Positions 5,405 through 50,663 are shown, counted from the first letter of the stretch. The stretch is DNA of 64,000 nt from a virus (IMGVR_UViG_3300009514_000004:62001-126000); one strand, 5' to 3'. Program-made: numbers and translations. Notes: generated by a model from the letters alone, not told the origin.

Positions 5405-5412
5405 AGAGAGGC

Positions 5413-9923: not shown

Positions 9924-9936
9924 TCAAGTCCCTCCG

Positions 9937-9946
9937 GATGGGGTAT
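9937..9946 (+). promoter_or_regulatory. GATGGGGTAT box, putative promoter element
   Basis: Same box as at 5395 and 21481, located 14 bases after the UvsY-like stop and about 70 bases before the next start, giving an mRNA with a plausible leader. It overlaps an ATG at 9938 that I reject as a start. Confidence 0.4.
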
Positions 9947-10015
9947 AGGGAGGCACACCACTGGCGCGCTTTGCTCGGAAAGAAGCCCAGCCCGCCCTTG
10001 CTAGGAGATACCAAG

Positions 10016-10735: not shown

Positions 10736-10750
10736 CCGGCTCGGGCTGGG

Positions 10751-11428
10751 ATGCGCGTTCTAGGGCTAGACCCGTCGCTCACCCAGTTCGGCTGGGCTGT
10801 TCATGACACCGCGGAGACCGGTCGTGCACGCTGCGGCGCGCGCGGCCGGTTCCGCACTTCGTCGAAGACCTTGTTCATCGATCGCTACGTCCAGATGCGG
10901 ACGAACCTGCGGTCGCTCCTCCAGGAGATAGGACCGATGCGCGTGGGCTTGGAATTCCCGGTGTTCAACGACCTCTGGTCGGAGGGCATGTACGGGTTGT
11001 TCCTGTTCTCGTGCGAGGCGTTGCGGCTTGAGGGTCGTGACGTCGTGTTCTTCTCCCCGGGGCAAATCAAGCGCCACGCAGCGGACTTCCTCGACCGTCC
11101 TCGTGGCTGGAAGATGAAGAAGGGCGACATGGTCGAGGCGGCCAGGACCGACACCGGGGGCAAGGGTCGGTGGAACCACAACGAGGCGGACGCGTACTGG
11201 GTCGCCCGCGCGGCGGCTCGATTCTGGCAGGTCCACGATGACCTGCTGACCCCCGAGGAGTTGACCGAAGCGGAGGCGCACCAGTTCCTCCGCATCCATA
11301 CCTACAAACGAGGCAAGCGAGCTGGGCAGACCGTGCGTAAAGGCATCCTCCACCGGGAGGATGAGCGGTTTTTCCTGTGGTCTGGCCCTTCAGGAGGAGA
11401 CACCCGTGCCCCGGAAAGCCGCGCCTAA
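10751..11428 (+). CDS. RuvC-like Holliday junction resolvase
   Basis: 225 aa, RNase H fold. Acidic catalytic residues are visible in order: D7 in RVLGLDPSLTQFGW, E68 in VGLEFPVF, and H143/D147 in WNHNEADAYWVA. The tail beyond about residue 165 is basic and extends past typical RuvC. It resolves four-way junctions during recombination or prepares DNA for packaging; position directly before recA fits. The 3' end overlaps the recA start region by 23 bases, and the recA ribosome site lies inside this gene. Confidence 0.85.
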   Translation: MRVLGLDPSLTQFGWAVHDTAETGRARCGARGRFRTSSKTLFIDRYVQMRTNLRSLLQEIGPMRVGLEFPVFNDLWSEGMYGLFLFSCEALRLEGRDVVFFSPGQIKRHAADFLDRPRGWKMKKGDMVEAARTDTGGKGRWNHNEADAYWVARAAARFWQVHDDLLTPEELTEAEAHQFLRIHTYKRGKRAGQTVRKGILHREDERFFLWSGPSGGDTRAPESRA

Positions 11429-12710: not shown

Positions 12711-12718
12711 AATGGGCC

Positions 12719-33228: not shown

Positions 33229-33903
33229 GTGAAGAAACAACGACCGACCGAGAAGAAAGCCATCCTCAAGAACCTGGATGGTCTGGTGACCCGCATCCGG
33301 GTTCTCGACAAGGACGGCAAGCAGCGCTGGCGGAAACGGGACCAGGTCAAGGATTCCGACCGAATCGAGCTGAACGCCGCAGGGCAACCCCACGTGATGA
33401 GGGGCAAGCCGGGCCGCGCTTACAAGCCGAACATCGAGGCTGTCAGCGCAACAGTAAAGGAGCTGAAGGAGCGCAAGAGCCAGTCGATCGCCACCAACCC
33501 GCTGGTCAAGGCGGTCGCCGACACCCCCAACTCCCCCGACGTCCTTCAGTACATCATGCAGGGCATGGCCACCGAGGCGGCCAGCTTGGCCTTCGAGCGC
33601 AGCGAAGCCGAGCGGAAAGGTGAGGGCACCAGCACCATCTCGACGCGGATGATCACCGCGTACAACTCCATCGCGAACACCTGGCTCAAACGGATGGAGC
33701 AGCTCGGTAGCGGAGGCAGCCTCGAGCTGGACTCCCCGGGCACCCAGGCGCTGCTCGCGTTCCTGTTCGAGACCGTTCGGGAGGCGATGGCGGCCGCGGG
33801 CCTCCGGCGTGAGATGGCCGACACCATCTTCGCGAACATGGCCGCGAAGATGAACGACAAAGGGTGGGAGTCCGAAGCCCGGCGTCGCATCAAGAACGCC
33901 TGA
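33229..33903 (+). CDS. Candidate terminase small subunit, 224 aa
   Basis: Directly upstream of the large terminase. Basic N-terminus (KKQRPTEKKAILKNL), then an SH3-like turn (RIRVLDKDGKQRWRKRD), and a long helical region (DVLQYIMQGMATEAASLAFERSEAE, RMITAYNSIANTWLKRMEQL). The helical part and gene order fit a small terminase, but no helix-turn-helix is clear. GTG start after GGGGGTCCAC. Confidence 0.5.
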   Translation: MKKQRPTEKKAILKNLDGLVTRIRVLDKDGKQRWRKRDQVKDSDRIELNAAGQPHVMRGKPGRAYKPNIEAVSATVKELKERKSQSIATNPLVKAVADTPNSPDVLQYIMQGMATEAASLAFERSEAERKGEGTSTISTRMITAYNSIANTWLKRMEQLGSGGSLELDSPGTQALLAFLFETVREAMAAAGLRREMADTIFANMAAKMNDKGWESEARRRIKNA

Positions 33904-33914
33904 ACGGGGGTGGT

Positions 33915-35876
33915 ATGGCTATCGGTTTAGGTGATCTGGCACTTCGCTCCGGCAAGAAGTCCGACGAGCAGAAAGACGATGTCGTCGACATCATCACGTT
34001 CATCGAGGCTCCCTGGGGCCTCGGGATGCGTTTGTTCCCGGTCCAGCGGGTCATCCTGAAGGCCCACTACGGCCTCGAGCTGGACGACAACCCCTTGGGC
34101 GTGGACATCACCAAGCCCATCCCCCTGGACCACCCCAACTACGACGAGATTACCGCTCAGGTCGGGCGAGAGAAGGGCTACTACAAGAACCGGGTCGTCG
34201 TCTCCGACTGGCGACGCACGACCTTCCAGGTGTTCACCGAGGCCGGGTACCTCCGGTACCTCCACGCCAGCGGGCGCTGCAACATCAAGGAGGTCACTCC
34301 CGGTGTCGAGCTGCGGGAGTTGGTCCTGGCCATCGGGCGCCGCTCCGGAAAGACGCTGCTGGCCTCGTGCATCGCGGCTTACGAGAACTACAAGCTGCTG
34401 TCCAAGGGCAACCCCCAGGCTTACTACGGCCTGCCCGAGGGCGACAACGTCATGATCACCTCGGTGGCGACCGACAAGGACCAGGCGGGGCTGCTCTACG
34501 CCGGCGTGTCGAACCACTTCCGCAAGTGCGCCTTTTTCAGGCCGTTCACCGCCAACAACACCCAGTCGTACGCGCGCTTCCAGACACCGCTCGACATCGA
34601 GCGGTACGGGACCTACAGCGACGACCCCAAGACGTCCAAGGCCTCGATCAAGGTCACGTTCAAGAGCTGCATCGCCAAAGGCCTCCGCGGGCCCGGCAAC
34701 ATCGTCATCATCCTCGACGAGATCGCGCACTTCACCGACGCGGGGCAGTCGTCGGCCGAGGAGGTCTACAAGGCCATCACGCCGTCGATTTCGGCGTTCA
34801 CGCCCAAGGATCCCGAGGACCCCACCACGGCCATCGGTCCCGGCGAGGGTCGCATCATCTCCATCTCCTCGCCGCTGGGTCAGGAGGGCAAGTTCTACGA
34901 GCTGTTCCAGCAGGGGATGAAGGGCACCCGGAACTTCCTGTGCATCGAGGCGCCTACCTGGGAGGTCAACCCGACCGTCCCCGAGGAGGAGTTCGAGAAG
35001 CACTACCTGAAAGACCCGCGAACCTTCTTCATCGAGTTCGGCGCCGAGTTCTCCCCACGTGGTCGCGGCTGGATTGAGGACCCCAAGGACCTGCTGGACT
35101 GCGTCGACCCAGGGCTGCGGCCGAAGTTTCGCGCGCCTGCGCGCGTGCCTCATTTCATGGGCATCGACTTCGCGCTCAAGGGCGACGCGACCGCGATCGC
35201 CATCGGGCACGTCAACGACCAGAAACGCATCGTTCTGGACTGCGTCGAGCAAATCAAGGCCGGCGAGGGCGACTACGACACCTACGACCGGCTCGACTTT
35301 GAGGAGGTCGCCGACTGGATCCACGGGTTCAGCAAGCGCTTTTTCATCGCCGAGGGGATGTTCGACACCTGGTCGGGCATCGTGTTCGAGCAGGCGCTCC
35401 ACAAGCGGGGGCTGACCCAGCTGAAATCGGTCAACCTGACTCGCCAGGAATCCTCGAAGCTGTGGTTCAACTTCAAGGACCTCATGTGGGACCAGCGCGT
35501 CATCTTGTACGACTGGCCGCTGCCCGAAGGGCAGAACCACTGCCCTTACATCCAGGAGCTGCTCGAGCTACAGGAGAAGCGGCACTCCAAGCACATCATC
35601 ACGGTCTCGGCACCCAAGGTCGACGGCAAGCACGACGACCGTCCCGACGCCCTTGTCCGCATGTGCTGGTTGGCGTCGAAGATCCTCGGCAACAACGCCT
35701 ACATCGCCAGCCGTCGTCAGGGTGACCCGAGGGCGCAGGGAGCCCGCTCCTTGAGCGCCAAGGAGTACCGCAAGGCCTACGTCAAGACGCGACGCGGCGG
35801 CAGCCACCCCGACCGGATGCCCAAAGGCGTCCGAGGCAAGGGCCGAACAGGGAGGACGGCCCGCGGGAGGTGGTAG
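33915..35876 (+). CDS. terL: Terminase large subunit
   Basis: 653 aa. ATG 33915 follows CGGGGGTGGT. ATPase motor: Walker A AIGRRSGKTLLA, Walker B NIVIILDEIAHF, coupling motif ISISSPLGQEG. Nuclease (RNase H fold): MGIDFALKGDATAIA, with acidic residues in FIAEGMFDT and HDDRPDALVRM. The C-terminus is basic (KTRRGGSHPDRMPKGVRGKG). Cuts and packages concatemeric DNA through the portal. The subtype (cos or headful) cannot be told here. Confidence 0.93.
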   Translation: MAIGLGDLALRSGKKSDEQKDDVVDIITFIEAPWGLGMRLFPVQRVILKAHYGLELDDNPLGVDITKPIPLDHPNYDEITAQVGREKGYYKNRVVVSDWRRTTFQVFTEAGYLRYLHASGRCNIKEVTPGVELRELVLAIGRRSGKTLLASCIAAYENYKLLSKGNPQAYYGLPEGDNVMITSVATDKDQAGLLYAGVSNHFRKCAFFRPFTANNTQSYARFQTPLDIERYGTYSDDPKTSKASIKVTFKSCIAKGLRGPGNIVIILDEIAHFTDAGQSSAEEVYKAITPSISAFTPKDPEDPTTAIGPGEGRIISISSPLGQEGKFYELFQQGMKGTRNFLCIEAPTWEVNPTVPEEEFEKHYLKDPRTFFIEFGAEFSPRGRGWIEDPKDLLDCVDPGLRPKFRAPARVPHFMGIDFALKGDATAIAIGHVNDQKRIVLDCVEQIKAGEGDYDTYDRLDFEEVADWIHGFSKRFFIAEGMFDTWSGIVFEQALHKRGLTQLKSVNLTRQESSKLWFNFKDLMWDQRVILYDWPLPEGQNHCPYIQELLELQEKRHSKHIITVSAPKVDGKHDDRPDALVRMCWLASKILGNNAYIASRRQGDPRAQGARSLSAKEYRKAYVKTRRGGSHPDRMPKGVRGKGRTGRTARGRW

Positions 35877-36131: not shown

Positions 36132-36484
36132 GGCGGTTCAAGACGGGTCAGACGCCGGCGGAAACGGAGATGAGTAAACATCTCGCCAACGCCCGGTCGT
36201 CCCTTCAGGCGGCCTATGCGGTTGCACACAAGGCCCGTACGAACCGCCGCGTCGTGAACCGGCGCGTGGCCGAAGCCGAGTACAAGATTCGGCGAGCCCT
36301 CGGCTCCATCGGCTCCATCCGAGGCCTCCAGCCGGCCTACGACTTGGATGACCCCGATCTGATGCCCGAGGAGGACAAGAGACCACCCACGCCGGCAGAG
36401 GTGCCGGCCAAGGGACCGCCGCAGCTGGACAAGTTCGCGGAGGAGGCCCTCGTTTTAGGCGAAGCCGGAGAGGACGGTAGTTGA
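36125..36484 (+). CDS. Hypothetical protein, 119 aa
   Basis: Two adjacent GTG codons (36125, 36128) overlap the previous stop; AAGGAGAA lies upstream. N-terminal half is a basic helix (RSSLQAAYAVAHKARTNRRV, NRRVAEAEYKIRRALGSI), C-terminal half is Pro/Glu-rich (PEEDKRPPTPAEVPAKGPP). Ends one base into the portal start region. Not recognised; probable head-operon accessory protein. Confidence 0.68.
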   Translation: MVRRFKTGQTPAETEMSKHLANARSSLQAAYAVAHKARTNRRVVNRRVAEAEYKIRRALGSIGSIRGLQPAYDLDDPDLMPEEDKRPPTPAEVPAKGPPQLDKFAEEALVLGEAGEDGS

Positions 36485-38181
36485 TGGCGAAGAAAGGACA
36501 ATCAGGACGAGTCGTACGGAAGATCCCCAAGCGCCGCCGTGTACAGACGGGGAAGCCACGCAAAATCATCGCGGGGTCGATGCGGGTAGCCTACGGCGCC
36601 GGGTTCGGCGGTGCGGGAAGTAGTGGAGTCCTGATGGGAGCGGGCGGCAACGTCTACTCCCCCGAGCTGTCGACAGATTTCCTCGAGCTTCCGCAGTCCA
36701 TAGACGAGCTGCGCAACTACTTCCGGTTCTTCTACCGGCGCGATCCGTTCGTGGGCCAGGCTGTCGACCTTCACGTCACCCTGCCGCTGTCCAAGACCAC
36801 GATCAGCCGACCGGAAGCCAAGAGCCAAGAGCTGGCCGAAGAAGCCACCAAAGCCATGGTTGTGTGGGCCGATGAGATCGGGCTGCTCCACCGGCTCATG
36901 GAGATCGTCCACGACTACACCCTGATGGGTGAGGTCCATGTCTTCTGCGAGGACACCTCCCCGGACATCCCCGAGCACCTTCTGTGGGAGACGGTGCGCA
37001 TCGTCGACGACGAGGGTGCCCACGAGGAGAAGATTCGTCGCAAGGACACCGAGGCTGAGGTCGCCGAGTGGGTCAAGGCCAACTACAAGGGCTGGACAGC
37101 CATCCGGGTCTTGCCCCCCGAGCAGGTTCACATCGAGACCTTCCCGTTCACCGATGAAAAGCTCATGGAGCTGGTCCCCGACAGCAAAACCCGGGGCGTC
37201 GTGGCCCAGGCCCAACAGGGTGACCCGCGGGCGCAACGCGTCGTCGACTCGATGCCCAAGGAGATCGTCGAGCGCATCATCGCCGGCGAGAACATCCCCC
37301 TGAACACCGACCCTGACGCCGGCAGTTTCGTTCACACGATGAGCCGCCAGAAGTCCCAGTACGAGGCGCGAGGACACTCGGTGCTCGAGCGGTGTCTGCC
37401 GACCCTGGTCTACCGTGACAAGCTCCGGCAGGCTCAGACGTCCATCGCCAGCCGGCACATGACCCCGTACCGCATCGTGTACGCCGAGGACATGTCCGCG
37501 GAACAGACCGAGGACCTCAGAGATCAGGTCGACCTGGCGCTCCAGGACCCCGATTTCTCGATCGTCACCAACTTCCCGGTCGAGTGGGACGAGCGCGGCG
37601 CCGACGGGCGGCTGCTGGACCTGTCGTCCGAGTACGACCTGACCGACCGCCAGCTGTACGCCGGCCTCGGCGTCACCGAGGGCCTCCTGACGGGCGAGTC
37701 GACCTACTCCGGCGACCGCATCAGCCTCGACGTCATCAACACCCGGTTCATGCTCCTCCGCGAGCTTCTTCAGGACATGGTCGAGAAGTATTTCTTCAAG
37801 CCCATGTGCCGGAGGATGGGCTTCATCGAGGTCGATGACGACGGTCGAGAGAGGGTGATCTACCCACGACTGTCGTTCACCCGCCTGCCCCTGCGCGACA
37901 ACCAGGACACGTTCGACATCCTGTTCAACCTCTACCAGAAAGGGTCGCTGGACATCGACGTCATCCTCGAGATGCTCAACATCGACCCGATCCGGACGCG
38001 CGAGAAGCTCAAGCGCGACGCGATCACGCTGTCGGACGCCACTTTCAACGAGATCCTCCGCAGCGCCTACAGCCAGGCTGGCTCTGACCTGGCGCAATAC
38101 TCCGATCTAGTCAAGAAGGCCGCCGAAGAGCTGGACCTCAAGTACGAGAAGCCCGAGGAAGAGGGTGGGGGTCGGTGGTAG
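36484..38181 (+). CDS. Portal protein
   Basis: 565 aa. Follows the terminase as in most tailed phages. Features of the portal family: a loop-rich N-terminus, DELRNYFRFFYRRDPFVGQAVDLH, the clip/stem region with EVHVFCEDTSPDIP, and a wing/crown region with DVINTRFMLLRELLQDMVEKYF and SFTRLPLRDNQDTFDIL. TTG at 36481 is in frame, but ATG 36484 is the conventional start. Forms the dodecameric DNA channel at one capsid vertex. Confidence 0.88.
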   Translation: MAKKGQSGRVVRKIPKRRRVQTGKPRKIIAGSMRVAYGAGFGGAGSSGVLMGAGGNVYSPELSTDFLELPQSIDELRNYFRFFYRRDPFVGQAVDLHVTLPLSKTTISRPEAKSQELAEEATKAMVVWADEIGLLHRLMEIVHDYTLMGEVHVFCEDTSPDIPEHLLWETVRIVDDEGAHEEKIRRKDTEAEVAEWVKANYKGWTAIRVLPPEQVHIETFPFTDEKLMELVPDSKTRGVVAQAQQGDPRAQRVVDSMPKEIVERIIAGENIPLNTDPDAGSFVHTMSRQKSQYEARGHSVLERCLPTLVYRDKLRQAQTSIASRHMTPYRIVYAEDMSAEQTEDLRDQVDLALQDPDFSIVTNFPVEWDERGADGRLLDLSSEYDLTDRQLYAGLGVTEGLLTGESTYSGDRISLDVINTRFMLLRELLQDMVEKYFFKPMCRRMGFIEVDDDGRERVIYPRLSFTRLPLRDNQDTFDILFNLYQKGSLDIDVILEMLNIDPIRTREKLKRDAITLSDATFNEILRSAYSQAGSDLAQYSDLVKKAAEELDLKYEKPEEEGGGRW

Positions 38182-38230: not shown

Positions 38231-41200
38231 GTGCCAGATGGAACACTCCAGCGTGTAGCTCGGAACCTGGTGGCGCGTCACCAGATGAGGGTCGTGGTGC
38301 GCCGTCTCGCCAAGACGGCCGGCTGGTGGGCGGTCAACCCCGACAAGGGCACGGGCCAGATCGACTGGGGCAACTCCGGTGAGCCGGGCGGCCTGGCCAA
38401 TGAGATCCCCGGCGAGGGGAGCGACGACGGCAAGAGGTACAACGGCGACGGCCCGGCCGACATGATGGGCGCGGTCCTCGACGACATCGACCTGGCTTAC
38501 CGCCAGGCGTGGGGTCGGCCGGCGTACCCGGAAGAGATCGATGCGGTGTTCGAGTTTGTGTTCCGCGGCGCGCGCAAGGATTACGCGGACCCGCCGCCCC
38601 CCGACACCGACGAGTACGTGTCATGGCCGCTCAATCGATGGGTCGAGGAGACTGCTGAGTTCGCCGGGGTCACGACCGAGCGTCTGATGAAGCTCCCCTG
38701 GGAAACCCTCCAGAAGCTCCGACAATGGGACATCGACCGCCGCAACGAGGGAGGGTCCAGCTCGTCCGACTCGGAGAAGGTCAAGAAGGAGAGGGAGGAG
38801 AAGAACCGCAAGAAGTGGGAGAAGCGCATCAAGTCGGTCATCGAGGTCAAGGTGAAAGCGGCCGGCAAGACCGCCGCCCTCGTGGGGACGGACGTCGCCG
38901 AGATCTACGCCATCTCACCTGAGCAACTCAGCACCCTCATCGAAGGGGGTCGGTGGGCTGAGGAGTGGCCCGAGGACCCGTTTGCCGCCGACAAACTCAT
39001 CCGGCAGCACGGCGGCGCAGTGTTCCATACGGGGGCTGATGGGAAGTTCGATGTGAAGATCCCCGACCGAGAAGGGTCCCTCCCCATCGTCGCTGAGTTC
39101 GGGTACATGGAACCCTACGGGACCAAAGGCTACGACGAGGCCATCAAGAAGGTGGCCAAGTTCGAGTGGCAAACAGGCGACGGATCCGAGACCTGGATTG
39201 GGTTCCGCATCCCCGCGCCCCTGTGCAATGAGTTCCCCGACCTCGGTCCCGAGGACAAGAGCCCTCCTCACATCACCTTCCTGTACGCGGGCAAGGTGGA
39301 CCCGGCGCGCACCGAGGAATTCCTGGCGACGATTCGTGACTCGTTCCGTTGGGTTCCGACGGTGCGCGCCAACTTCCTGGGTCTCGACTACTTTACCCAT
39401 GCGGACAAGAACCGGCGGGTCGCGATCAACCAGGTTCGGTTCGACCGTGACTTGTCAGACATCCGCTGGCGACTGCGAGAGGCCCTCAACGACCGCGGTT
39501 TCGACGTAGAGGACAGTTACCCGCTCCTTTACAAGCCCCACGCGACCCTCGAGTACATCGACGGCCTCGACACGCCCTACAAGGGTCACGTGCCGCGTGG
39601 GGATGTCATCCTGACCGAGGTCGAGGTCTGGGGGATGCCCAAGGTCCACCGGGTCGCGTTCGGCGGGGAGCGCAGGGACCTGTCCCCAAAGAGGGTGGCG
39701 TCCCTGTACCAGAAGCGGGCGTCACAGGACGACCTGTTCGACCCCCGGTTCAACCTTCGGGAGTGCTGCAAGCACCTCATCCTCCTCGAGGACCACCTGG
39801 CGCACCCGCACAAGCGGTGCAACGACTGCATCAACAAGCACCTGCTGGCGGTGGAAGCCTTCGCCGAAGAGGGCGTGGCGCTCCAACCAGGCGGTCCCCT
39901 GTCGCAGCTTCTGGGACAGGTCGCCTCGACGGCAAGGGCGGCTCAGGGGTCTTGGTTGGCCAACCAAGACTCCGAAGGTCTCGGCGCCGTTCTGCGCAAG
40001 CTCCGCAAGTTCCTGGTGCCGCTGACCTGGGCTACCAAGATGGCCCGGATGGCCAAGACCTTCACGGTCAACGTCGGCGACCCGGTGCTGACGGGCAAAT
40101 TCCAGAACAGCCCGGGCATCGTCCGCGGGTTCGACAAGGACGACAAGGGCAACCCGCTCGTGATCGTTCAGAAGGGCAAGGAGGGCGACGGGTCCAAGAA
40201 GACCTACAAGCTCTTCAAGATCAGGTACGACCTCGCCCGTGCCGAGCAGATGAAAAAGAAGGCCTTCGATGGCACCCGGTACGAGGTCGGTGAAGAGGTG
40301 GCTTTGGGTTCGTACCGGGATAGCGACCGGCCGGACGTTGCCATCTACTACTCCGGGGTCATCCTGGGTCCTCCCGATCACCTGCGGGAGACCCGAGACA
40401 GCGACCTCCAGGTCGAAGTCCATTACTCCGACGGTACCAAAGTCGAGAAGGTCGACCCGGACACTGTCATGTCTCGGGAGGAGTGGCTCGAAGCGCATCT
40501 TGGGCAGCCCTTCCCTAAGGGTCGGGTTGAGGTGCCCTCCAAGACAGCCGACCTGATGCCCCCTCTGGGGTATCCGGGCGGTCCCTGCCACGTCGTCCAG
40601 CGCATCGACGACCAGGTCCGCAACCCGAGGGTCAAAGACAACCTGACTGACCAAGTCCAGGACGGCAAGAGCCTGTCGAACCCGTCGGCGGCCAAGGTCT
40701 ACCGACTCGAGAAGGAGAGGGGGCCGGGCGGCCCCATCAAGCAGATCCTCATCGGCCCGCACGCGCAGTACCGGATGGACCTGCGCGGCGTGACGGTGAC
40801 CGAGGTCCGCCTGGCGCTCAAGCGGTTCACCAAGCAGCTCAACGACTGGAAGTCGCGCAAGGATTTCCAGTACGAGCACTTCATCACCCGGTTCCAGCGA
40901 GGCGAGAGCTACGAGTACACCGACCCGGGCCTCAAGCTCACAGTCGTTTTCGCCGGCCACGGTCGCGACACCGCCAAGATCGTCACGACCTACTGGAAGG
41001 GTCAGCCCGACCCGCCCCCTCCTGGAGCGTGCCTCCTCCCTTCCCCCTCTCGGGTCGCGGCCAGGTACAAGAACAAGAAGGAGGTGCCCAAGGCCGACGG
41101 GAAGGGCACGACTACGGTGTACGAGTACGGCCCCCGCCAGGTGGCGAACCGGAACAAGGAGAAGGCCCAGAGGGTCGAGAAGCTCCGCAAGAACATCGGC

Positions 41201-44200
41201 AAGCTCCGGTCGCAGGTGCGGCAGGACCTGATGGACTCCGACGAGGCCAAGCGCCTCACAGCCCTGGCGGTCGCTCTCATCGACAACACTTTCGAGCGGG
41301 TGGGCAACCCTGAGTCGGCCAAGCAGGGCCACTTCGGGGTCACCGGATGGCTCGTCAAGCACGTCACGATCGGCAAGAGCAAGGCGACGCTGAAGTACGT
41401 CGGCAAGTCCGGGGTCAAGCAGGAGAAGACGATCGACGACGCAGGGGTCGTCCTGGCCCTCAGAGAGGCGATCGCCGACAAGGGCAAGGGCGACAAGATC
41501 TGCTCGGGAACCGACTGCGAGATCGGTGCCTCAGACGTCAACGCCTACCTCAAGCCTTTCGGGGTGACGGCCAAGGATCTGCGCGGGTTCCACGCCAACA
41601 CCGAGATGCAGAGGTTCCTCAAGGAGGAGCGCAAGGGCTCCCTGCCCGACGACAAAAAGAAGCGCGAAGATCAGCTCAAGAAGGAGTTCGACGCCGCTCT
41701 CGAGAAGTCGGCCAAGGCGGTCGGGCACGAGGCCTCGACGCTGCGCTCCCAGTACCTGGTCCCCGGACTCGAGGAGGCGTTCCTCAAGGACGGCACAGTC
41801 GACGACTCCCTGGTCAAGAAGGCGGGGGAGGACTGGTGGTACCGCCCGTACAGCATATATTCCCCGCCGGGGGTCTACGCGGGGACCAAGAGCGACGGCG
41901 ACAAGGAAGACGACAACGCCCGCAAGCTCATCAAAAAAGAGCCCAAGAAGAAGCCCCCGCGCCGGGACCTGCGCAAGCGTCGTCTGGACGACACCGACCC
42001 CGACATCGAGCCCCAAGGCGCCGAGAACGACCCCGACCTGAGCCTCAACTGGAAGAAGGTCTCGGCGATCCACCGCATGGCCGACTTTTGGCTGCGGCGC
42101 CGTCAGGTCCTGGCTGGTCTGGTGGCTCCCGACAAAAAGCCCAAGGCCGACGGGGACTATTGGTCGCCAGGAGACGGGAAATACTCCGGCATGGCCAATG
42201 GTGTGGTGCAGACCTTCGACAACCCCGAGTCGGCCAAGGATTACGCCTCGGGCAAGAAGAAGGAAGAGGACGACAAGGAGCCCAAGACCGAGAAGGAGGA
42301 GAAGGAGAAGGAGAAGGCTGAGAGGGAGGAGGCGAAGAAACAGGAGCAGCTGGAGAAGAAACGCAAAGAGCGGCGAGAGCGCGCGATCAGCGAGATGAAC
42401 GACAAGGTCTCGCAGGCGTTCGAGCAGATGGGTATCGAAGGGATGTCCTCGGCGGTTCAGAAGGACCTCAAGCAAGCTCTCGAGCAGATCCCTGACGGCG
42501 AGGGCAAGGCCGCCTGGGCGTTCGAGGAGCATGTCTCCAAGCTGATCGAGAGCGATATCGCGGATGCCGGGTTTACCAACGAGGCCATCGAACGCGCCTC
42601 CAAGGCACTGTCCCGGACCAAGTACGACGGCAAGGATCCCGAGAAGCTCGGGCGGCAGTACGCGGAGCTTGTTTTCGCGCAGATTGTCTCCAACCCCTCT
42701 TTGTTGGCCGCCAAACCCGTGTCCTCGACGCCGAAGACACCCGAGGCATTACAAGAGCGAGCTGAACAAGCCCACGACCAGTACATGCGGATGCCGTCAG
42801 AGCTGCGGGCAGAGGCAGCTAAGCAGCTCGTCGCGCAGATGAAGAACCTCAAAGAGGACTCGCCGGAGTATCAGGAGCTGGCAGCGATCGGCGATGGCTT
42901 GCATTTGGCGGCGGTCCAGAACGACGAACGTCTGGAGGTCGGAGGCAAGGAACTCCGGAGCCGACCGACCCCACGCCTGCGGGCCCTGCTCAAGCAGTTG
43001 GGGCCCGAAGCCGGCAAGCACACCGAACTCCTGCATCTCGACCACCTGACCTCCCCCAAGGGCCGCAAGCAGGTCCGGCAGCATATGGACAAGCTCGAGC
43101 CCGAGGAAGTGGTCGACTTCGTCGGAGGCACCGAGGGCCCGTTCGGTCAGCTTGCGGGGCTGGTCAACGACCCCGAGCTGAGCACCGAGCACCGGGAGCT
43201 GGCCCTGAAAATGCTCAAGGGCCTGGCGGTCGACGAGATGACCGTGGCCGGCGGGTTCCTCCAGCGGGCCGCCAAAGGCAACCGCGACCGCGGCGCCGAG
43301 AAGGCTGACATCCGTGAGCAGGTCGAGAAGGGCAAGGGCAAGGGCCGCAAGCTCTTCGATGAGGATGAGGAAGCCGAGACCGAAGAGGCCAAGGCCGAGA
43401 AGGAGTACCGCGAGTGGGAGTCCCGGGAGGAGAAAAAGAAGGCCAAGCGGTCGGAGCTGCTCCAGAAGTACGACGCCTCGAAGGCCAAGTACATGGAGGC
43501 CCGCAGGGCTAAAGACAGGTTCATCCAGGAACGGATGAAGGCCCGGGACCAAGGCAAGGACGACTGGAGCGAGCACGAAGAGGAGTACGAGAAGCTCACC
43601 CAGGCTGTTGAAGACCTCCAGAACGAGGTCGACGGCTGGAAAGCGGAGATGGAGGCGGTCCAGGCGGAGCCCGCCCCCGAAGGTGCCAAGGCCCCGCCCA
43701 GCTCTTCGGCGAAAAAGGCCGATGAGGTCTTCGACCGTGTAGATCAGATCTTGTCGGAGTCCAAAGGGCTCAGCGTCGACGAGCTTCGATCACGGTTCCA
43801 GTCGGAGATGTCGGTCGAGGACGAGCTGGAGAAGATTCTCGCGGAAGACAAGACGTACAAGCCGCAAACACCTCCTCCCTGGGCCAACCCCATCGGCAAG
43901 CTCGACGAATGCCTCCGGGAGGGTGGCACGTACGACACGTGCATCCAGAAGGTCCGGAAGCTGCGGCAGCAGTTCGAGGCCTGGAAGGACGAGAAGACCA
44001 GCGAACGTATCCTTGCCGAAGTCAAAGACAGCCCCGAGATGAAGAAGGCCACCGAGGAGATGTTGGAGGCCATGAGGGGCGACACCCTTTCAGTCGATGC
44101 CCGCGCCGAGGTCGAGAGAAAGTACCGGGCGGCGTATGCTCGATCTGTCCAGGGTGCCGCCCACCGGGAGTTCGGTGAGCTTTCGCCCGGGAATCCGGCG

Positions 44201-45211
44201 GCCGCTCAGATGAGTCAGGTTGCTGAGACGGGCAAGGTCGAGGAGTTCGACAACCGCTGGGAGTCGGCACCCAAGAAGGAGTCGTCCTGGAGTCCTCGAG
44301 GCGGATTTTTTCAATCACGTTTCTATACGGCCGGACATATATGCGGAGGGCGTAGCCACGCCCGTGTAAGTCCGTCGTGGAATAACAACCTCCCAAGGAG
44401 AAACCGGACGATGGCTAACGATAACAAGCAGGCGCAGTTCAAGCTCACGGCGGCAGTGGCGATGAAGATCGGCGCGGACTTCGACAAGGTGGCCAACTTG
44501 GTCACCCACATGCACGAGGTCCTCGGCATTCCCGAGAAGATCGCGATGGATTACGCCCGTCGGACCGACTACCTCTCGAGCCTCATCGAGCGCAACGCCG
44601 GGCTCGACCCGCGCAACAAACAGGCGCTGACCGAGGACCCGAACCTCAAGGTCGACTACCCGGTCAAGCCGGGCTTCGACCCCGAGGAGATCGGCGAGGA
44701 GGTCTCCGGGACCCTCGAAGGCGACGCCGACGAGAAGTCCTACATGGGCGACAACTTCTCCCAGCAGGAGAACCGCGAGCTGCGTGAGCGGCAGGAGGGC
44801 GGCGACCTGGCCAAGCTCCAGGTGATCGACGACGAGCAGTCTTCGACCCCCGGTCGACAGGCCACGCTCGACGAGACGCTGTCGAAGTTCAAGGGCACCC
44901 AGCTCCGGACTTTCATCAGCCAGCTCGAGTCCGACTACCAGGCCGCCTCGGGCAAGCTCGGTGGGACGCGGCGAGGTGATCTTCGTTCGATCGCCGGTGG
45001 GCTGGCGTACATCGCCCACAACCTCGGGAAGGCCGCGTCGGCCCTCGAGGATGACGACACGATCGTCGGCAACTACACCCGGCAGGGTATCCAGCGTGTC
45101 GCCGCGGCGGCCAACGAGGTCCTCCCGCATGTCCAGGGCGACATCGCCGAGACGGACATCCCGAAGCTGGCCCAGCTGGTCGACGCCGTCGCCGACATCC
45201 TCGCGGCCTGA
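38231..45211 (+). CDS. Giant head-module polyprotein-like frame with 2H phosphoesterase and topoisomerase IB domains
   Basis: 2326 codons without a stop. Order: leader VARNLVARHQMRVVVRRLAK (5-31); 2H phosphoesterase about 310-475 with PPHITFLY (His347) and KPHATLEY (His437); Cys domain near 512 (RECCKHLILLEDH, HKRCNDCINKH); a small domain near 840-925 (GPHAQYRMDLRGVT, GLKLTVVFAGHG) faintly like BrnT/DUF4258-type toxins; topoisomerase IB about 945-1190 with Arg1023, Lys1059, Arg1118, His1166 and Tyr1175; then long charged coiled coils (1370-2030). From about 2030 the frame crosses an AT-rich, intergenic-like stretch and continues into an apparently separate gene at 44411. Probably cut by the protease at 45776. 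RBS GAGGAAG precedes the GTG. Confidence 0.8.
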   Translation: MPDGTLQRVARNLVARHQMRVVVRRLAKTAGWWAVNPDKGTGQIDWGNSGEPGGLANEIPGEGSDDGKRYNGDGPADMMGAVLDDIDLAYRQAWGRPAYPEEIDAVFEFVFRGARKDYADPPPPDTDEYVSWPLNRWVEETAEFAGVTTERLMKLPWETLQKLRQWDIDRRNEGGSSSSDSEKVKKEREEKNRKKWEKRIKSVIEVKVKAAGKTAALVGTDVAEIYAISPEQLSTLIEGGRWAEEWPEDPFAADKLIRQHGGAVFHTGADGKFDVKIPDREGSLPIVAEFGYMEPYGTKGYDEAIKKVAKFEWQTGDGSETWIGFRIPAPLCNEFPDLGPEDKSPPHITFLYAGKVDPARTEEFLATIRDSFRWVPTVRANFLGLDYFTHADKNRRVAINQVRFDRDLSDIRWRLREALNDRGFDVEDSYPLLYKPHATLEYIDGLDTPYKGHVPRGDVILTEVEVWGMPKVHRVAFGGERRDLSPKRVASLYQKRASQDDLFDPRFNLRECCKHLILLEDHLAHPHKRCNDCINKHLLAVEAFAEEGVALQPGGPLSQLLGQVASTARAAQGSWLANQDSEGLGAVLRKLRKFLVPLTWATKMARMAKTFTVNVGDPVLTGKFQNSPGIVRGFDKDDKGNPLVIVQKGKEGDGSKKTYKLFKIRYDLARAEQMKKKAFDGTRYEVGEEVALGSYRDSDRPDVAIYYSGVILGPPDHLRETRDSDLQVEVHYSDGTKVEKVDPDTVMSREEWLEAHLGQPFPKGRVEVPSKTADLMPPLGYPGGPCHVVQRIDDQVRNPRVKDNLTDQVQDGKSLSNPSAAKVYRLEKERGPGGPIKQILIGPHAQYRMDLRGVTVTEVRLALKRFTKQLNDWKSRKDFQYEHFITRFQRGESYEYTDPGLKLTVVFAGHGRDTAKIVTTYWKGQPDPPPPGACLLPSPSRVAARYKNKKEVPKADGKGTTTVYEYGPRQVANRNKEKAQRVEKLRKNIGKLRSQVRQDLMDSDEAKRLTALAVALIDNTFERVGNPESAKQGHFGVTGWLVKHVTIGKSKATLKYVGKSGVKQEKTIDDAGVVLALREAIADKGKGDKICSGTDCEIGASDVNAYLKPFGVTAKDLRGFHANTEMQRFLKEERKGSLPDDKKKREDQLKKEFDAALEKSAKAVGHEASTLRSQYLVPGLEEAFLKDGTVDDSLVKKAGEDWWYRPYSIYSPPGVYAGTKSDGDKEDDNARKLIKKEPKKKPPRRDLRKRRLDDTDPDIEPQGAENDPDLSLNWKKVSAIHRMADFWLRRRQVLAGLVAPDKKPKADGDYWSPGDGKYSGMANGVVQTFDNPESAKDYASGKKKEEDDKEPKTEKEEKEKEKAEREEAKKQEQLEKKRKERRERAISEMNDKVSQAFEQMGIEGMSSAVQKDLKQALEQIPDGEGKAAWAFEEHVSKLIESDIADAGFTNEAIERASKALSRTKYDGKDPEKLGRQYAELVFAQIVSNPSLLAAKPVSSTPKTPEALQERAEQAHDQYMRMPSELRAEAAKQLVAQMKNLKEDSPEYQELAAIGDGLHLAAVQNDERLEVGGKELRSRPTPRLRALLKQLGPEAGKHTELLHLDHLTSPKGRKQVRQHMDKLEPEEVVDFVGGTEGPFGQLAGLVNDPELSTEHRELALKMLKGLAVDEMTVAGGFLQRAAKGNRDRGAEKADIREQVEKGKGKGRKLFDEDEEAETEEAKAEKEYREWESREEKKKAKRSELLQKYDASKAKYMEARRAKDRFIQERMKARDQGKDDWSEHEEEYEKLTQAVEDLQNEVDGWKAEMEAVQAEPAPEGAKAPPSSSAKKADEVFDRVDQILSESKGLSVDELRSRFQSEMSVEDELEKILAEDKTYKPQTPPPWANPIGKLDECLREGGTYDTCIQKVRKLRQQFEAWKDEKTSERILAEVKDSPEMKKATEEMLEAMRGDTLSVDARAEVERKYRAAYARSVQGAAHREFGELSPGNPAAAQMSQVAETGKVEEFDNRWESAPKKESSWSPRGGFFQSRFYTAGHICGGRSHARVSPSWNNNLPRRNRTMANDNKQAQFKLTAAVAMKIGADFDKVANLVTHMHEVLGIPEKIAMDYARRTDYLSSLIERNAGLDPRNKQALTEDPNLKVDYPVKPGFDPEEIGEEVSGTLEGDADEKSYMGDNFSQQENRELRERQEGGDLAKLQVIDDEQSSTPGRQATLDETLSKFKGTQLRTFISQLESDYQAASGKLGGTRRGDLRSIAGGLAYIAHNLGKAASALEDDDTIVGNYTRQGIQRVAAAANEVLPHVQGDIAETDIPKLAQLVDAVADILAA
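44310..44363 (+). promoter_or_regulatory. Late-promoter-like element plus hairpin inside the giant frame
   Basis: TTCAAT (44310-44315), 8 bases, TATAC (44324-44328), then TATATG at 44338-44343 and a perfect hairpin GGGCGT-AGCC-ACGCCC (44348-44363). It is the most AT-rich stretch nearby and looks like an intergenic promoter and leader for the gene at 44411, although the upstream frame has no stop here. Confidence 0.5.
44411..45211 (+). CDS. Putative head protein, 266 aa (independent start inside the giant frame)
   Basis: ATG 44411 has AAGGAG 11 bases upstream and a promoter-like element 80 bases upstream, so it probably begins a separate protein even though the giant frame runs into it. N-terminal helices (KLTAAVAMKIGADFDKVANL, HEVLGIPEKIAMDYARR), an acidic middle (DPEEIGEEVSGTLEGDADE), and a helical C-terminus (RSIAGGLAYIAHNLGKAASAL, IPKLAQLVDAVADIL). 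Fits a small internal head or scaffold-associated protein upstream of the protease; no family recognised. Confidence 0.6.
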   Translation: MANDNKQAQFKLTAAVAMKIGADFDKVANLVTHMHEVLGIPEKIAMDYARRTDYLSSLIERNAGLDPRNKQALTEDPNLKVDYPVKPGFDPEEIGEEVSGTLEGDADEKSYMGDNFSQQENRELRERQEGGDLAKLQVIDDEQSSTPGRQATLDETLSKFKGTQLRTFISQLESDYQAASGKLGGTRRGDLRSIAGGLAYIAHNLGKAASALEDDDTIVGNYTRQGIQRVAAAANEVLPHVQGDIAETDIPKLAQLVDAVADILAA

Positions 45212-45775: not shown

Positions 45776-47215
45776 ATGGGGTTCGTCAAGTACGCCAATG
45801 CTGAGGTCGTGGATCCACGGGTCAACAAGACCGCGTGGAACAACATCCGTACGGCCTCGTTTGGTACCCCAGTAGACCTGATCGAGCAGGCCTCGGCGAT
45901 CTTCGCCGAGCCGTTCAACCCCTCCAAGTTCCTCTTGACTCACGCGACGATCGTGGCGTCCGTAGATGTGGTCGACGCCCCCAACGCCAAGCTGGGGTCG
46001 CACGTCGAGAACGGGTTCAAGGTCAACCGGAAGTTCGGCGACTACCGGCTCAAGACCGACTCCCAACGGTTCGTCAACAACAACAACGACTGCTGGTCAC
46101 GGGGGGTGCTCAAGCTCGCACACCCGACGTTCGTGGGCGCCCACAACTTCGTCGAGCATGTGCAGATAGAGGAGCTGAGCAAGGGCCGCATCATCGACGC
46201 GGTGGCTCGCGACATCGGCCCCTCCATCTACACCGACATCCTGATCGCGACCGAGCTGAAGCACGCCCCTCTCATCCGTTCCATCCGGAGCGGGGAGATG
46301 TCGACGCTGTCGATGGGCTGCACGGTCGATTTCACCATCTGCACCAAGTGCGGTCACGTCGCAGCGGACGAGACCGAGATGTGCCCGCACGTCAAGTACC
46401 AGAAGGGCAACACGTACATCGACCCGATGACCGGCCAGATCCTCAAGATCGCCGAGTTGTGTGGGCACGAGAGCGTGGATCCCACTGGTGGCGTGGTCTT
46501 CATCGAGGCCAGCTGGGTCAAGACACCAGCTTTCACCGGCGCGGTGCTCCGCAACGTCCTTCAGCCGTCCAAGGAGCTGAGCCGGCAGATCGAAGCCGTT
46601 CTGGCCTCTCCGCCGAAGAAGTGGAGCGAGGACACCCAGGTCAAGGCCGCCGCTGACGCCCGACTTTCCCAGTGGGAAGAAGAGGAGACCGAGGGCGAGG
46701 GTGAAGAAGAAGAGGAAGAGGCCAAGTCTCCCCTCGATGACGTCAAGGACGAAGTCGAGCAGCACATCCTTGACCAGACGGTCAAGAAGCTGAAGAAGAA
46801 GGTCAAAGAAGATGCCGCCAAGGATGAGTTGGGTGTACTCCCCTCGTCGGCGTCCCCCAACGAGAACGTGAACAAGTGGTCAGCCGAGCGCAAGACCGCG
46901 GCACGTCACTACGTTGCGGCTCTCAAAGCGATCGCGACGACCGCCTCGTCAGACGTTGCTCTGATGAACGGCGTCGCGACGTTCAACCAGTCCGTTGGCA
47001 TTCAGATCCCGGTTCATGTGTACCGGGCCGCGCTCCAGCTCGGAGCAAGGTCCAAGTACGCGTCCGAGGCGGCGTTCAGGAAGGCCTGTCGGCAGGCACT
47101 GGGTCGGAAACCTTATCCGGCCGAGTTCCAACAGGTGCTCGCCATGAGCACCCTTCTCACGCGGAGGCACCCTTCCGCAACCACTCTTGACGGAGGTCAA
47201 AATGAGCACGCGTAA
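45776..47215 (+). CDS. Putative prohead/capsid maturation protease
   Basis: 479 aa. Protease-like domain about residues 50-270: a His in HNFVEHVQIEEL, and a serine motif GEMSTLSMGCTVDFTICTKC that also starts a zinc-knuckle-like Cys set (CTKCGHVAADETEMCPH). Residues about 300-360 are acidic, helical and repetitive (EGEGEEEEEEAK, EVEQHILDQTVKKLKKK), and a C-terminal helical domain follows. Gene order (portal, protease, scaffold, capsid) supports the role. It would process scaffold, capsid and perhaps the giant polyprotein. Catalytic residues are inferred. Confidence 0.68.
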   Translation: MGFVKYANAEVVDPRVNKTAWNNIRTASFGTPVDLIEQASAIFAEPFNPSKFLLTHATIVASVDVVDAPNAKLGSHVENGFKVNRKFGDYRLKTDSQRFVNNNNDCWSRGVLKLAHPTFVGAHNFVEHVQIEELSKGRIIDAVARDIGPSIYTDILIATELKHAPLIRSIRSGEMSTLSMGCTVDFTICTKCGHVAADETEMCPHVKYQKGNTYIDPMTGQILKIAELCGHESVDPTGGVVFIEASWVKTPAFTGAVLRNVLQPSKELSRQIEAVLASPPKKWSEDTQVKAAADARLSQWEEEETEGEGEEEEEEAKSPLDDVKDEVEQHILDQTVKKLKKKVKEDAAKDELGVLPSSASPNENVNKWSAERKTAARHYVAALKAIATTASSDVALMNGVATFNQSVGIQIPVHVYRAALQLGARSKYASEAAFRKACRQALGRKPYPAEFQQVLAMSTLLTRRHPSATTLDGGQNEHA

Positions 47216-48884
47216 GCGTACGTCGTGGGCGGATGGCAACAAGGTCGCGTCTCCGCCTCCCGCTGTCCCGGGATACCTGGAATACTGGACCGACGACGGT
47301 GGGCCACACCCTGCCGCGTACAAGGATCCGGCCTACGAGGCCTACAAGAAGGGCGACCCTTCGGCGTGGGCCGAAGATGTGCACCCGGGTCCGCACCGCA
47401 CGTCGGAGCCCCCGTCGGTTCCTGGCTACCGCCAGGAGGACGGCAAGGCCCACCCGGCCGATGACCGCGACAGCTCCAACAAGCGCGCGGCGGAGGAGAT
47501 CCCCCGTCACGAGCTGGAGGCGCGGGCTCTCAAAGCCATCCACATCGCCCAACAGCTGCTGCCCAAGACGGCCTCGGTGGCCGAGATCGAGCAGCAGGCT
47601 GCGGACCTGATGGAGATGCCCCCGGAGCGTCTCGAGAAGACCCTCGAGCGCGTCGGCGGCGGGTTCATGGGCATGGAGGAGGGCATGATGGGCTGTGGCC
47701 CGGCTGAGGGCATGGACATGCCCATGGGCGAGGACATGCCCCTCGAGGAGGAGGAAGGTGGCGACGAAGCCATGGCCTCCGGCCGCTACTCCATGGACGA
47801 CGTGCTCTCCATGATCATGGGGATGAAGCAAGAGATGGAGGCCATGAAGGGCGGCATGATGCACGCCGCCGACCAGAACGACCCCGACTTCATGTTCGAC
47901 GGTGACGGCGGGTCCGGCGGTGAGTTCTCCGAAAAGGAGGTCGACGACCGCACCAAGAACGTCACCGGCACGGGCCTGGGCATGTACGCGAAGAAGGTCG
48001 CGTCCGAGATGTTCAAGTCCATGGACACCGACGGCGACGGCTTCGTCACCGAGGAGGACTGGACGGGCGACAAGAAGCTCTTCGCGTCCCTCGACACCGA
48101 CGGTGACGGCATCCTCGCGTACGGCGAGACCATCGAAGCCCTGGCGAGTCGCTTCGCCCAGGACGACGAAGAGGACGACGACGGCGAGGAGGAGGAGGGC
48201 AAGGAAGCCGGCGAGCTGCCCGAGGCCTTCAAGAAGAACATCAAGAAGAAGGACGACGAGGAGGGCGACGACGACGACGACGACGAGGGTGAAGAGGGCA
48301 AGGAGGCCGGCGACAAGTCCGCCACCATGACGCTCTTCGCCGGTCTCGACGACGAAGCGAAAGCCATGCTCCGGCAGATGCTCGCCGAGGAAGACGCCAA
48401 GACCGCGCAGGACGAGGGCGAGGACGAGGGCGAGGACGAGGGCGAGGACGAGGGCGAAGAGGCCGAAGAGGACGAGGAGGGCAAGGAAGCCGCTCTCGTC
48501 GCGGAGGCCGGCACCTTCGCCATGGTGGACGACCCGATGGGTCTGTCCGGCGATGCGCCCGAGGACACCCTGCTCGTCGACCTGTTCACCAGGCAGGCCG
48601 AGGACGAGGAGGCCGAAGAGGGCGACGACGAAGGCGAAGAGGAGGAAGGCAAGGAGGCCACCCTGGTCGCCGACCCGGATCCCGAGACCCAGGCCAAGCA
48701 GACCGAGGTCGTCGCCAAGGTCGCATCCAAGGTCGCGTCCAAGAGCAAGCGTCGCCCCAAGGGCCGCAAGCCGTCCAAGGGCGTCAAGCAGCTCGGCCGC
48801 GTGGCCGCCGACCAGAGCGACAAGGTCAGTGACCTGTCGAACCTGTGGGAGACCAAGCCGGACGTGAGCAGCGCGTTCGAGTAG
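47202..48884 (+). CDS. Acidic scaffold/prohead core protein with two EF-hands
   Basis: 560 aa from ATG 47202 (CGGAGG upstream). Pro-rich N-terminus, Met/Gly-rich middle (GFMGMEEGMMGCG), two canonical EF-hand loops DTDGDGFVTEED (275-286) and DTDGDGILAYGE (298-309), then long acidic low-complexity tracts and a basic tail (KSKRRPKGRKPSKGVK). Size, charge and place just before the capsid genes fit a scaffold. Paired Ca-binding loops are unusual for one and suggest calcium-linked folding or assembly. Confidence 0.68.
   Translation: MSTRKRTSWADGNKVASPPPAVPGYLEYWTDDGGPHPAAYKDPAYEAYKKGDPSAWAEDVHPGPHRTSEPPSVPGYRQEDGKAHPADDRDSSNKRAAEEIPRHELEARALKAIHIAQQLLPKTASVAEIEQQAADLMEMPPERLEKTLERVGGGFMGMEEGMMGCGPAEGMDMPMGEDMPLEEEEGGDEAMASGRYSMDDVLSMIMGMKQEMEAMKGGMMHAADQNDPDFMFDGDGGSGGEFSEKEVDDRTKNVTGTGLGMYAKKVASEMFKSMDTDGDGFVTEEDWTGDKKLFASLDTDGDGILAYGETIEALASRFAQDDEEDDDGEEEEGKEAGELPEAFKKNIKKKDDEEGDDDDDDEGEEGKEAGDKSATMTLFAGLDDEAKAMLRQMLAEEDAKTAQDEGEDEGEDEGEDEGEEAEEDEEGKEAALVAEAGTFAMVDDPMGLSGDAPEDTLLVDLFTRQAEDEEAEEGDDEGEEEEGKEATLVADPDPETQAKQTEVVAKVASKVASKSKRRPKGRKPSKGVKQLGRVAADQSDKVSDLSNLWETKPDVSSAFE
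48411..48458 (+). repeat. Four tandem 12-base repeats in the scaffold gene
   Basis: GACGAGGGCGAG repeated four times (last copy ends GAA), encoding DEGE units. Perfect codon-phased copies imply recent slippage and possible length variation. Confidence 0.85.
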
Positions 48885-49787: not shown

Positions 49788-50663
49788 ATGAGTGGTGTAA
49801 CCAACGCAACCAAGCAGCGCATCATCTCAGAGTACATCCGTACTCCCGCCGGCCGGCAGAAGCTGGCGGCGTCGATGACGCAGCCGCTCCGTACCCGCCG
49901 CGACTACGCTGCGGTCGGCCGCAAGACCTTCTTGGTCGAGCAGCTCCCGGACGGCGCGCTCCCGATCTACGACAAAGACCCGGATGTCACGGCATACGTC
50001 GTCGGCGAGGAAGGCCAGAACATTCTGGCCATCACCAAGCCGCGGCGCGTGATCTTCCCGCTGTTCGAGATCGCGAGCAACCCGGAGATCCCGCTGACCC
50101 AGATCAAGGAGCGCAGGTTCGACCTGATCGAGCGCGCTCAGGAGCTGGCGAGGGCTCAGATCCAGGCCGCCGAGGACGAGCGCGTCTTCGCCATCCTGGA
50201 CTCGATCGCGACGGCGGGCTTCGACTCGCTGCCGGCGCAGCTCAACCCCGACATCCCGGTCGTCGCCCCCATCTCGGGTGCGGTGCTCGCGGATGCCTTC
50301 GCTCTCGTGGAGCGTCACGACCTGCGGGTCGCGCGCGTCTTCATGAACGCGAGGGACTACGCGGACCTCCGCAAGTTCGGGCGGGACATCCTCGACATCG
50401 AGACGCAGGCTCAGCTGCTGAAGACCGGCCTCATGGGAACCCTGTGGGGAGCCCAGGTCATCGTCAGCCGCCTCGTCCCCGTGTCGACCGTCTATGTATG
50501 CTGCGAGCCCGAGATGTTCGGGCGCATCCCGGTGCGCACCGAGCTGACCGTGTTGTCGGCCGACGATCCCAAGGCTCGAACGATCGGATTCTCCGTGTTC
50601 GAGAACCTGGGCATCGGCGCCTACAACCCGCGCGGACTCACCCGTCTCACGATCACCCGCTAG
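49788..50663 (+). CDS. Major capsid protein (HK97-fold)
   Basis: 291 aa. ATG after GAGGGAGGCAAG. Capsid features: a helical N-terminus, E-loop-like FEIASNPEIPLTQIKERRFDL, spine helix LIERAQELARAQIQAAEDERVF, P-domain and A-domain strands ARVFMNARDYADLRKF, TGLMGTLWGAQVIVSRLVP, and C-terminal IGFSVFENLGIGAYNPRGL. It is followed by a terminator, as expected for a highly expressed late gene. Confidence 0.87.
   Translation: MSGVTNATKQRIISEYIRTPAGRQKLAASMTQPLRTRRDYAAVGRKTFLVEQLPDGALPIYDKDPDVTAYVVGEEGQNILAITKPRRVIFPLFEIASNPEIPLTQIKERRFDLIERAQELARAQIQAAEDERVFAILDSIATAGFDSLPAQLNPDIPVVAPISGAVLADAFALVERHDLRVARVFMNARDYADLRKFGRDILDIETQAQLLKTGLMGTLWGAQVIVSRLVPVSTVYVCCEPEMFGRIPVRTELTVLSADDPKARTIGFSVFENLGIGAYNPRGLTRLTITR

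What the first reader, a model, noticed from the sequence alone, without database searches (positions are those of the whole stretch)
41070..41800. Complete topoisomerase IB domain inside a head-module polyprotein
The pentad of the vaccinia/eukaryotic type IB enzymes is present in order: Arg1023 (FERVGNPES), Lys1059 (YVGKSGVK), Arg1118 (KDLRGFHAN), His1166 and Tyr1175, with His and Tyr nine residues apart as in vaccinia H265/Y274. The domain is encoded between portal and capsid protease, not among replication genes, so it may be packaged and act on DNA during packaging or ejection.
Basis: partly seen in the sequence, partly recalled or inferred. Interest (0 to 1): 0.85.

Follow-up and report, generated by a model that had tools for sequence, protein, structure and literature searches.

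The report
Topoisomerase IB riding in megaphage heads
A family of very large uncultured bacterial viruses carries a stripped-down version of the DNA-untwisting enzyme known from poxviruses and eukaryotes, built into a multi-domain protein made with the virus head, so the enzyme is probably packed in the particle and delivered with the viral DNA, though this has not been shown.

Summary
ORF 38231-45211 contains a type IB topoisomerase domain (Pfam PF01028, E=8.8e-25). All five catalytic residues are at the stated positions and are invariant in 63 distinct relatives. An AlphaFold model (pLDDT 91) matches only type IB topoisomerases among its 22 best PDB hits, variola first. The gene lies between portal and head protease. 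"Complete" needs correcting: only the catalytic core is present; the N-terminal clamp (~60-75 aa) is missing, also in natural 273-aa stand-alone relatives. About 90 relatives occur in uncultured phage contigs up to 536 kb, all in one clade. Most lie in the same place; a derived clade moved the gene to between terminase and portal, or away from the head genes. In 41 records it is almost always the only topoisomerase recognised. The carrier is a "polyvalent" protein: siblings add 2H phosphoesterase, CCA/poly(A) nucleotidyltransferase, RNA ligase, InPase, GNAT, NUDIX or LPD1 domains. A short motif, RVAxRY, sits before the topoisomerase, between other domains and at the ends of separate proteins (42 seen, 2 expected, outside the topoisomerase): a candidate head-targeting or processing tag. 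Best reading: a virion-packaged, DNA-relaxing cargo domain. Packaging, cleavage and enzyme activity are inferred, not shown.

The parts
38231..45211 (+). Multidomain (polyvalent-type) head-module ORF, 2326 aa, carrying the topoisomerase
   Evidence: relatives of 386-2837 aa in the same place
41048..41821 (+). Type IB topoisomerase catalytic core (aa 940-1197), R1023 K1059 R1118 H1166 Y1175
   Evidence: PF01028 8.8e-25; pentad 63/63; AF2 pLDDT 91; Foldseek variola 1e-11
41048..41080 (+). RVAARYKNKK motif at the start of the topoisomerase (candidate targeting or processing tag)
39689..39715 (+). Second tag copy KRVASLYQK, after the 2H domain
   Evidence: leave-window-out PSSM score 18.9; position
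38249..38281 (+). Degenerate tag-like sequence QRVARNLVARH at the N-terminus
   Evidence: read from sequence; not scored above threshold
39128..39640 (+). 2H phosphoesterase-like domain; HIT (39269) and HAT (39539) motifs
   Evidence: HxT pair invariant in 21/21 homologues; PF13563 in L017 7e-11, L003 2.3e-5, L019 6.6e-6
40586..41026 (+). Domain of unknown function (YRMD...ITTYW), on a separate tag-bearing protein in L003's genome
   Evidence: phmmer homologue in G002, score 150
41951..42088 (+). Conserved linker KPPRxDLR ... DLSLNWKKV, the most widely shared non-topoisomerase part; on a separate protein after the portal in the derived clade
44411..45211 (+). In-frame downstream segment with own ATG and Shine-Dalgarno; separate gene in most relatives
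36481..38181 (+). Portal protein
   Evidence: PHROG 16240 1.3e-28; homologous to phage G and Tunturi_5 portals
33864..35876 (+). Terminase large subunit
   Evidence: PHROG 2, 1.3e-25
45776..47215 (+). Head maturation protease
   Evidence: PHROG 18299 4.9e-10; profile matches annotated Tunturi_5 head maturation protease
47202..48884 (+). Acidic EF-hand protein (scaffold-like by position and composition)
   Evidence: PF00036 1.3e-7
49788..50663 (+). Major head protein
   Evidence: PHROG 2522 1e-49

Best explanation
The domain is a minimal type IB topoisomerase (catalytic core only) carried as a cargo domain of a polyvalent head protein. The protein is made late with the head genes, recruited into the prohead (the RVAxRY motif being the likely recruitment or processing signal) and delivered into the host with the genome. 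There the topoisomerase relaxes the incoming, torsionally constrained phage DNA by the usual cycle: Tyr1175 attacks a phosphodiester to form a 3'-phosphotyrosyl nick, the free end swivels, and the nick is resealed without ATP. This would support early transcription and replication of genomes of up to about half a megabase that, with rare exceptions, have no other recognisable topoisomerase. Shown: domain identity, fold, catalytic residues, head-module locus, conservation, fusion to polyvalent domains, tag enrichment. Inferred: activity, packaging, tag function, timing of action.
For: Domain, fold and pentad. Head-module location and conserved gene order. Single phage clade (98*) on a branch of 1.5; arrangement changes only twice on the tree. 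Polyvalent-type fusions: InPase, RNA ligase and PolyA_pol, NUDIX and zincin-like, LPD1 and GNAT, 2H with invariant HxT pair. Tag: 42 copies outside the topoisomerase and its own tag against 1.96 expected; 75 in topoisomerase ORFs against 3.8, but 0-4 in portal, TerL, protease and EF-hand proteins; at N- or C-termini of other proteins. Only topoisomerase recognised in nearly all of 41 records: type IIA 1/41, type IA 0/41. Precedents: T4 internal proteins carry short capsid targeting sequences and are delivered into the host (PMC9026906); vaccinia topoisomerase H6R is listed among known virion enzymes (PMC1540416).
Against: No virion proteomics, cleavage data or activity assay. In 16 distinct relatives (one clade) the gene lies away from the head genes (53 kb or more from the portal where both were located), so head linkage is not essential. 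The clamp of poxvirus enzymes is missing. The strict tag pattern is rare in the window's own genome: 1 hit against 1.5 expected; only the broader profile shows an excess, 8 against 1.0 above score 10. Many records are fragments, so absence of other topoisomerases is provisional.
Confidence: 0.55

Rival explanations
1. Packaging-motor swivelase: the topoisomerase acts at the portal-terminase complex during DNA translocation, removing torsion from the concatemer, and need not be delivered.
For: In one clade a stand-alone copy of roughly 350 aa sits between terminase and portal; in the ancestral arrangement it follows the portal.
Against: 16 relatives have it far from terminase and portal. It is fused to effector-type domains with no packaging role. 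Other tailed phages package without one.
Confidence: 0.15
2. Ordinary intracellular topoisomerase for late replication, transcription or decatenation, whose gene happens to sit and fuse in the late region.
For: It is the only recognisable topoisomerase in nearly all 41 records; other jumbo phages carry larger topoisomerase I genes outside the head module (PMC7824862).
Against: Stable association with polyvalent proteins, linker and tag over a diverse clade.
Confidence: 0.2
3. Ejected effector against the host: the domain nicks or relaxes host DNA, or traps cleavage complexes, as part of a counter-defence or take-over package.
For: It shares polypeptides with polyvalent conflict domains (2H, InPase, GNAT, NUDIX, LPD1).
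Against: The topoisomerase is the constant member while effector domains vary; the full catalytic set is kept, as expected of a true topoisomerase.
Confidence: 0.08

Closest known systems
Poxvirus topoisomerase IB (vaccinia/variola H6R)
   Same: Five catalytic residues, His-Tyr spacing of 9, KDxR...N motif, fold (Foldseek E 1e-11, TM 0.71); also in the virion (PMC1540416)
   Different: About 20% identity; phage form lacks the N-terminal clamp and is usually fused to other domains; bacteriophage head locus
Bacterial topoisomerase IB (Deinococcus; 16 actinobacterial homologues used in the tree)
   Same: Same family, Pfam PF01028
   Different: Score 71-122 bits against the phage profile versus 386-400 for members; separate clade; they have 60 or more residues before the core
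Larger topoisomerase I of jumbo phages Lu11, PaBG and Rhizobium phages
   Same: Type IB superfamily, phage-encoded
   Different: 24-28% identity, about 560-606 aa, stand-alone, beside thymidylate kinase in Lu11 and PaBG; not in the clade
Polyvalent proteins of phages (Iyer et al. 2017, PMC5512222)
   Same: Multidomain protein encoded in the portal-terminase head context; 2H, InPase, GNAT, LPD1 and zincin-type domains in siblings
   Different: No topoisomerase is mentioned in that paper's main text outside the reference list; the tag and constant topoisomerase are additional
T4 internal proteins with capsid targeting sequence
   Same: Short terminal peptide shared by different head cargo proteins
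   Different: Sequence unrelated; here also between domains and at C-termini; targeting not tested

Membership tests
Type IB topoisomerase | Catalytic pentad Arg, Lys, Arg, His, Tyr | tested here: met
   63/63
Type IB topoisomerase | Catalytic-core fold closer to topoisomerase IB than to tyrosine recombinases | tested here: met
   Top 22 PDB hits topoisomerase IB (1e-11 to 5e-6); XerH 5.5e-4
Type IB topoisomerase | N-terminal clamp domain as in poxvirus and Deinococcus enzymes (typical, but not part of the catalytic definition) | tested here: not met
   Alignment starts at variola residue 62 and Deinococcus 75; 273-aa stand-alone L062 has only the core. I therefore file it as a clamp-less variant, not as a typical member
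Type IB topoisomerase | ATP-independent relaxation of supercoils | not testable with these tools
   Needs purified protein
Polyvalent protein | Two or more distinct domains in one polypeptide of an invasive element | tested here: met
   2H + topoisomerase here; several recognised enzymatic domains in relatives
Polyvalent protein | Encoded in a portal-terminase head context | tested here: met
Polyvalent protein | Contains domains curated as polyvalent-associated (LPD, InPase) | tested here: inconclusive
   Met in relatives L022 (LPD1 1.4e-7) and L008 (InPase 2.2e-37); not in the window protein
Polyvalent protein | Transferred into the host with the DNA | not testable with these tools
   No virion or ejection data
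Capsid targeting sequence (functional analogue) | Short peptide shared by unrelated cargo proteins, placed at termini | tested here: met
   18 of 35 genome-wide hits within 25 aa of an end, p=0.003; enrichment
Capsid targeting sequence (functional analogue) | Directs incorporation into proheads and is cleaved by the head protease | not testable with these tools
   Experiment needed

The most novel reading that the evidence does not exclude
Megaphages of this lineage use a short terminal and interdomain peptide (RVAxRY) as a general address for loading enzymes into the capsid. A clamp-less topoisomerase IB is the core, always-delivered cargo that conditions the genome's topology at ejection, around which varying RNA-repair and counter-defence enzymes are assembled.
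Probability: 0.35. Interest if true: 0.85.

Novelty: new variant of a known kind. Interest (0 to 1): 0.66.

Why it matters
If the enzyme is packaged, it would be a bacteriophage that brings its own topoisomerase in the particle, as poxviruses do, and would make the topology of genome ejection experimentally testable. The shared peptide, if it is a head address, would let one predict which of the many unknown megaphage proteins are injected into bacteria. A natural clamp-less topoisomerase IB is also a useful minimal enzyme for studying and engineering DNA cleavage and joining.

Tried and rejected
Chance match or recombinase: rejected by Pfam, fold and pentad conservation. Tag as the general head-protease site: not supported, as the motif is absent from portal proteins, nearly absent from the protease, and no strong hit falls in the major head protein. 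One hit inside an RNase R-like protein (G002 111281) is probably a native RNB motif and was discounted. Tag in cultured relatives: none in 25,695 aa of head, tail and nearby genes of phage G and Tunturi_5, which also gave no topoisomerase IB match. Named Pfam/PHROG identity for the C-terminal half or linker: none. Prior report of a topoisomerase IB in a phage polyvalent or virion protein: none found in the open-access library searched, which misses most subscription papers.

Full report
What is there. The + strand ORF 38231-45211 (2326 aa) contains a type IB topoisomerase domain: PF01028 at aa 973-1170, E=8.8e-25, and significant sequence matches to solved type IB enzymes including 6z01, Deinococcus and variola topoisomerases. 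They are invariant in 63 distinct sequences, the relatives being 49-68% identical to the window domain.

Fold. AlphaFold2 on 63 sequences gave pLDDT 91 and pTM 0.85. Foldseek against PDB returned 22 type IB topoisomerase chains first (variola 2h7g, E 1e-11, TM 0.71). The first tyrosine recombinase, XerH, came at 5.5e-4.

Correction on completeness. The similarity begins at residue 62 of the variola enzyme and 75 of the Deinococcus enzyme, so the N-terminal clamp is missing. It is not simply elsewhere in the polypeptide: natural stand-alone relatives begin a few residues before the core (MDPFAHRVAARFKSKK in L062; MRPDLSERVAARYKEKK in L035), and the 273-aa L062 protein folds as the core alone (pLDDT 88), with its tag region (residues 1-9) predicted as disordered. 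That vaccinia's catalytic domain works without its clamp is my recollection, not tested here.

Neighbourhood. The gene lies in a head module: terminase 33864-35876, portal 36481-38181, this ORF, a small zinc-ribbon-like gene, protease 45776-47215, an acidic EF-hand protein and the major head protein 49788-50663. Nucleotide and replication-type genes (ribonucleotide reductase, Dda-like helicase, exonuclease) lie about 25 kb or more upstream at 606-13948. Nearest cultured structural relatives are Tunturiibacter phage Tunturi_5 and Bacillus phage G (portal 36% and 26%, head protein 48% and 39%). Neither was hit in the topoisomerase search.

Relatives. A profile scan of IMG/VR gave 89 relatives, 80 kept, on contigs up to 536 kb; an uncultured 485-kb phage record is another. 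Gene order falls into three kinds. (a) Inside or as the protein between portal and protease (as far as each contig reaches), ORFs of 386-2837 aa: 39 distinct sequences, including the window. (b) A stand-alone gene of roughly 350 aa between terminase and portal: 8. (c) Away from the head genes: 16, at 53 kb or more from the portal where both were located. In a tree with cellular and other phage homologues, these topoisomerases (with two from genome bins, probably phage contigs) form one clade (98*) on a branch of 1.5. Kinds b and c together form one clade (95*), and the arrangement changes only twice. So the enzyme behaves as a vertically inherited core gene of this lineage. Among 41 records, type IIA topoisomerase was found in one and type IA in none, while all 41 have topoisomerase IB. 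Three records also hold a second, divergent topoisomerase IB.

The carrier protein. The window protein also holds a 2H phosphoesterase-like domain with both HxT motifs, invariant in 21 homologues. Siblings carry PolyA_pol/CCA-type nucleotidyltransferase, InPase and RNA ligase, NUDIX and zincin-like domains, GNAT and LPD1. The uncultured 485-kb phage has, by eye, an N-terminal HAD-type phosphatase. This is the architecture of 'polyvalent proteins' (PMC5512222), which are encoded near portal and terminase and proposed to be packaged and injected; that paper's main text mentions no topoisomerase outside its reference list. Domains fused in one phage are separate genes in another: the 40586-41026 domain is on a separate protein in the 536-kb relative, and the linker KPPRxDLR is at the N-terminus of a separate post-portal protein in clade b.

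The tag. Inspection of domain boundaries suggested a recurring RVAxRY/F motif. In topoisomerase ORFs there are 75 copies against 3.8 in shuffles. Portal, terminase, protease and EF-hand proteins have 0, 4, 2 and 0. Excluding the topoisomerase and the tag directly before it, there are 42 against 1.96, and an unbiased pattern count ranks RVA.R. second only to the PPRxDLR linker among recurring patterns. In two large relatives the motif occurs 20 and 15 times genome-wide against 2.9 and 3.4 expected, with 18 of 35 within 25 aa of a protein end (p=0.003). Examples are MKSFQRVATRYLKAD, MGLAQRIIARYLIAN and MTSQAQRLASRYTNE. It was absent from the head, tail and nearby regions examined in phage G and Tunturi_5. 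In the window genome the strict pattern is not enriched (1 against 1.5); a profile built without the window finds 8 hits above score 10 against 1.0 expected, three of them in this ORF or the next gene. The motif was noticed and tested on the same loci; the genome-wide counts in G002 and G028 are therefore the more independent test, although one locus of each was among those first inspected. By analogy with T4 capsid targeting sequences (PMC9026906) I propose a head-targeting or processing tag. This is inference.

Mechanism. Most likely the topoisomerase is late-expressed head cargo that enters the cell with the DNA and relaxes it by the usual nick-swivel-reseal cycle. Vaccinia provides a precedent for a virion type IB topoisomerase (PMC1540416). 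Rivals (packaging swivelase, ordinary intracellular enzyme, host-directed effector) are weighed above; none is excluded.

Boundary of the ORF. The last 266 aa have their own ATG and Shine-Dalgarno sequence, are a separate ORF in most relatives and fused in a few, and the junction has a weak coding signal. The 2326-aa figure should be treated with caution.

Noticed in passing
L002, L017 (topoisomerase proteins); portal, terminase and protease ORFs of L010, L012, L020, L063, L083, L084: Inteins: splicing and LAGLIDADG domains inside the nucleotidyltransferase (L002, L017), and long interruptions in portal, terminase and protease ORFs that look like inteins. The lineage seems intein-rich in head genes.
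   Followed up: partly
L003, L002, L017, L019: CCA/poly(A) nucleotidyltransferase head domain in the same head-module protein as a topoisomerase, often with a 2H phosphoesterase; L008 has an RNA ligase: an apparent RNA-repair set in a possible virion protein.
   Followed up: partly
window 56059-63414: 2451-aa ORF with no PHROG match, downstream of the head genes.
   Followed up: no
window 50884-52776: LAGLIDADG-type homing endonuclease-like ORF just after the major head protein gene.
   Followed up: no
window 606-5375: Ribonucleotide reductase ORF of about 1600 aa matched in several separate stretches, so it may contain an insertion such as an intein.
   Followed up: no
G008:C1:82816-83403, G013:C1:35232-35864, G016:C1:202198-202842: Second, divergent topoisomerase IB copies in three relatives, possibly of another phage type.
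   Followed up: no
L004 7042-8343 and 10511-11794: Two ORFs that look like TnpB-type transposon proteins flanking the terminase gene of the 485-kb uncultured phage.
   Followed up: no
L090 and L091 (GTDB genome bins): Contigs binned as an Actinomycetota and an uncultured bacterium MAG carry clade members; probably phage contigs, possibly host hints.
   Followed up: partly
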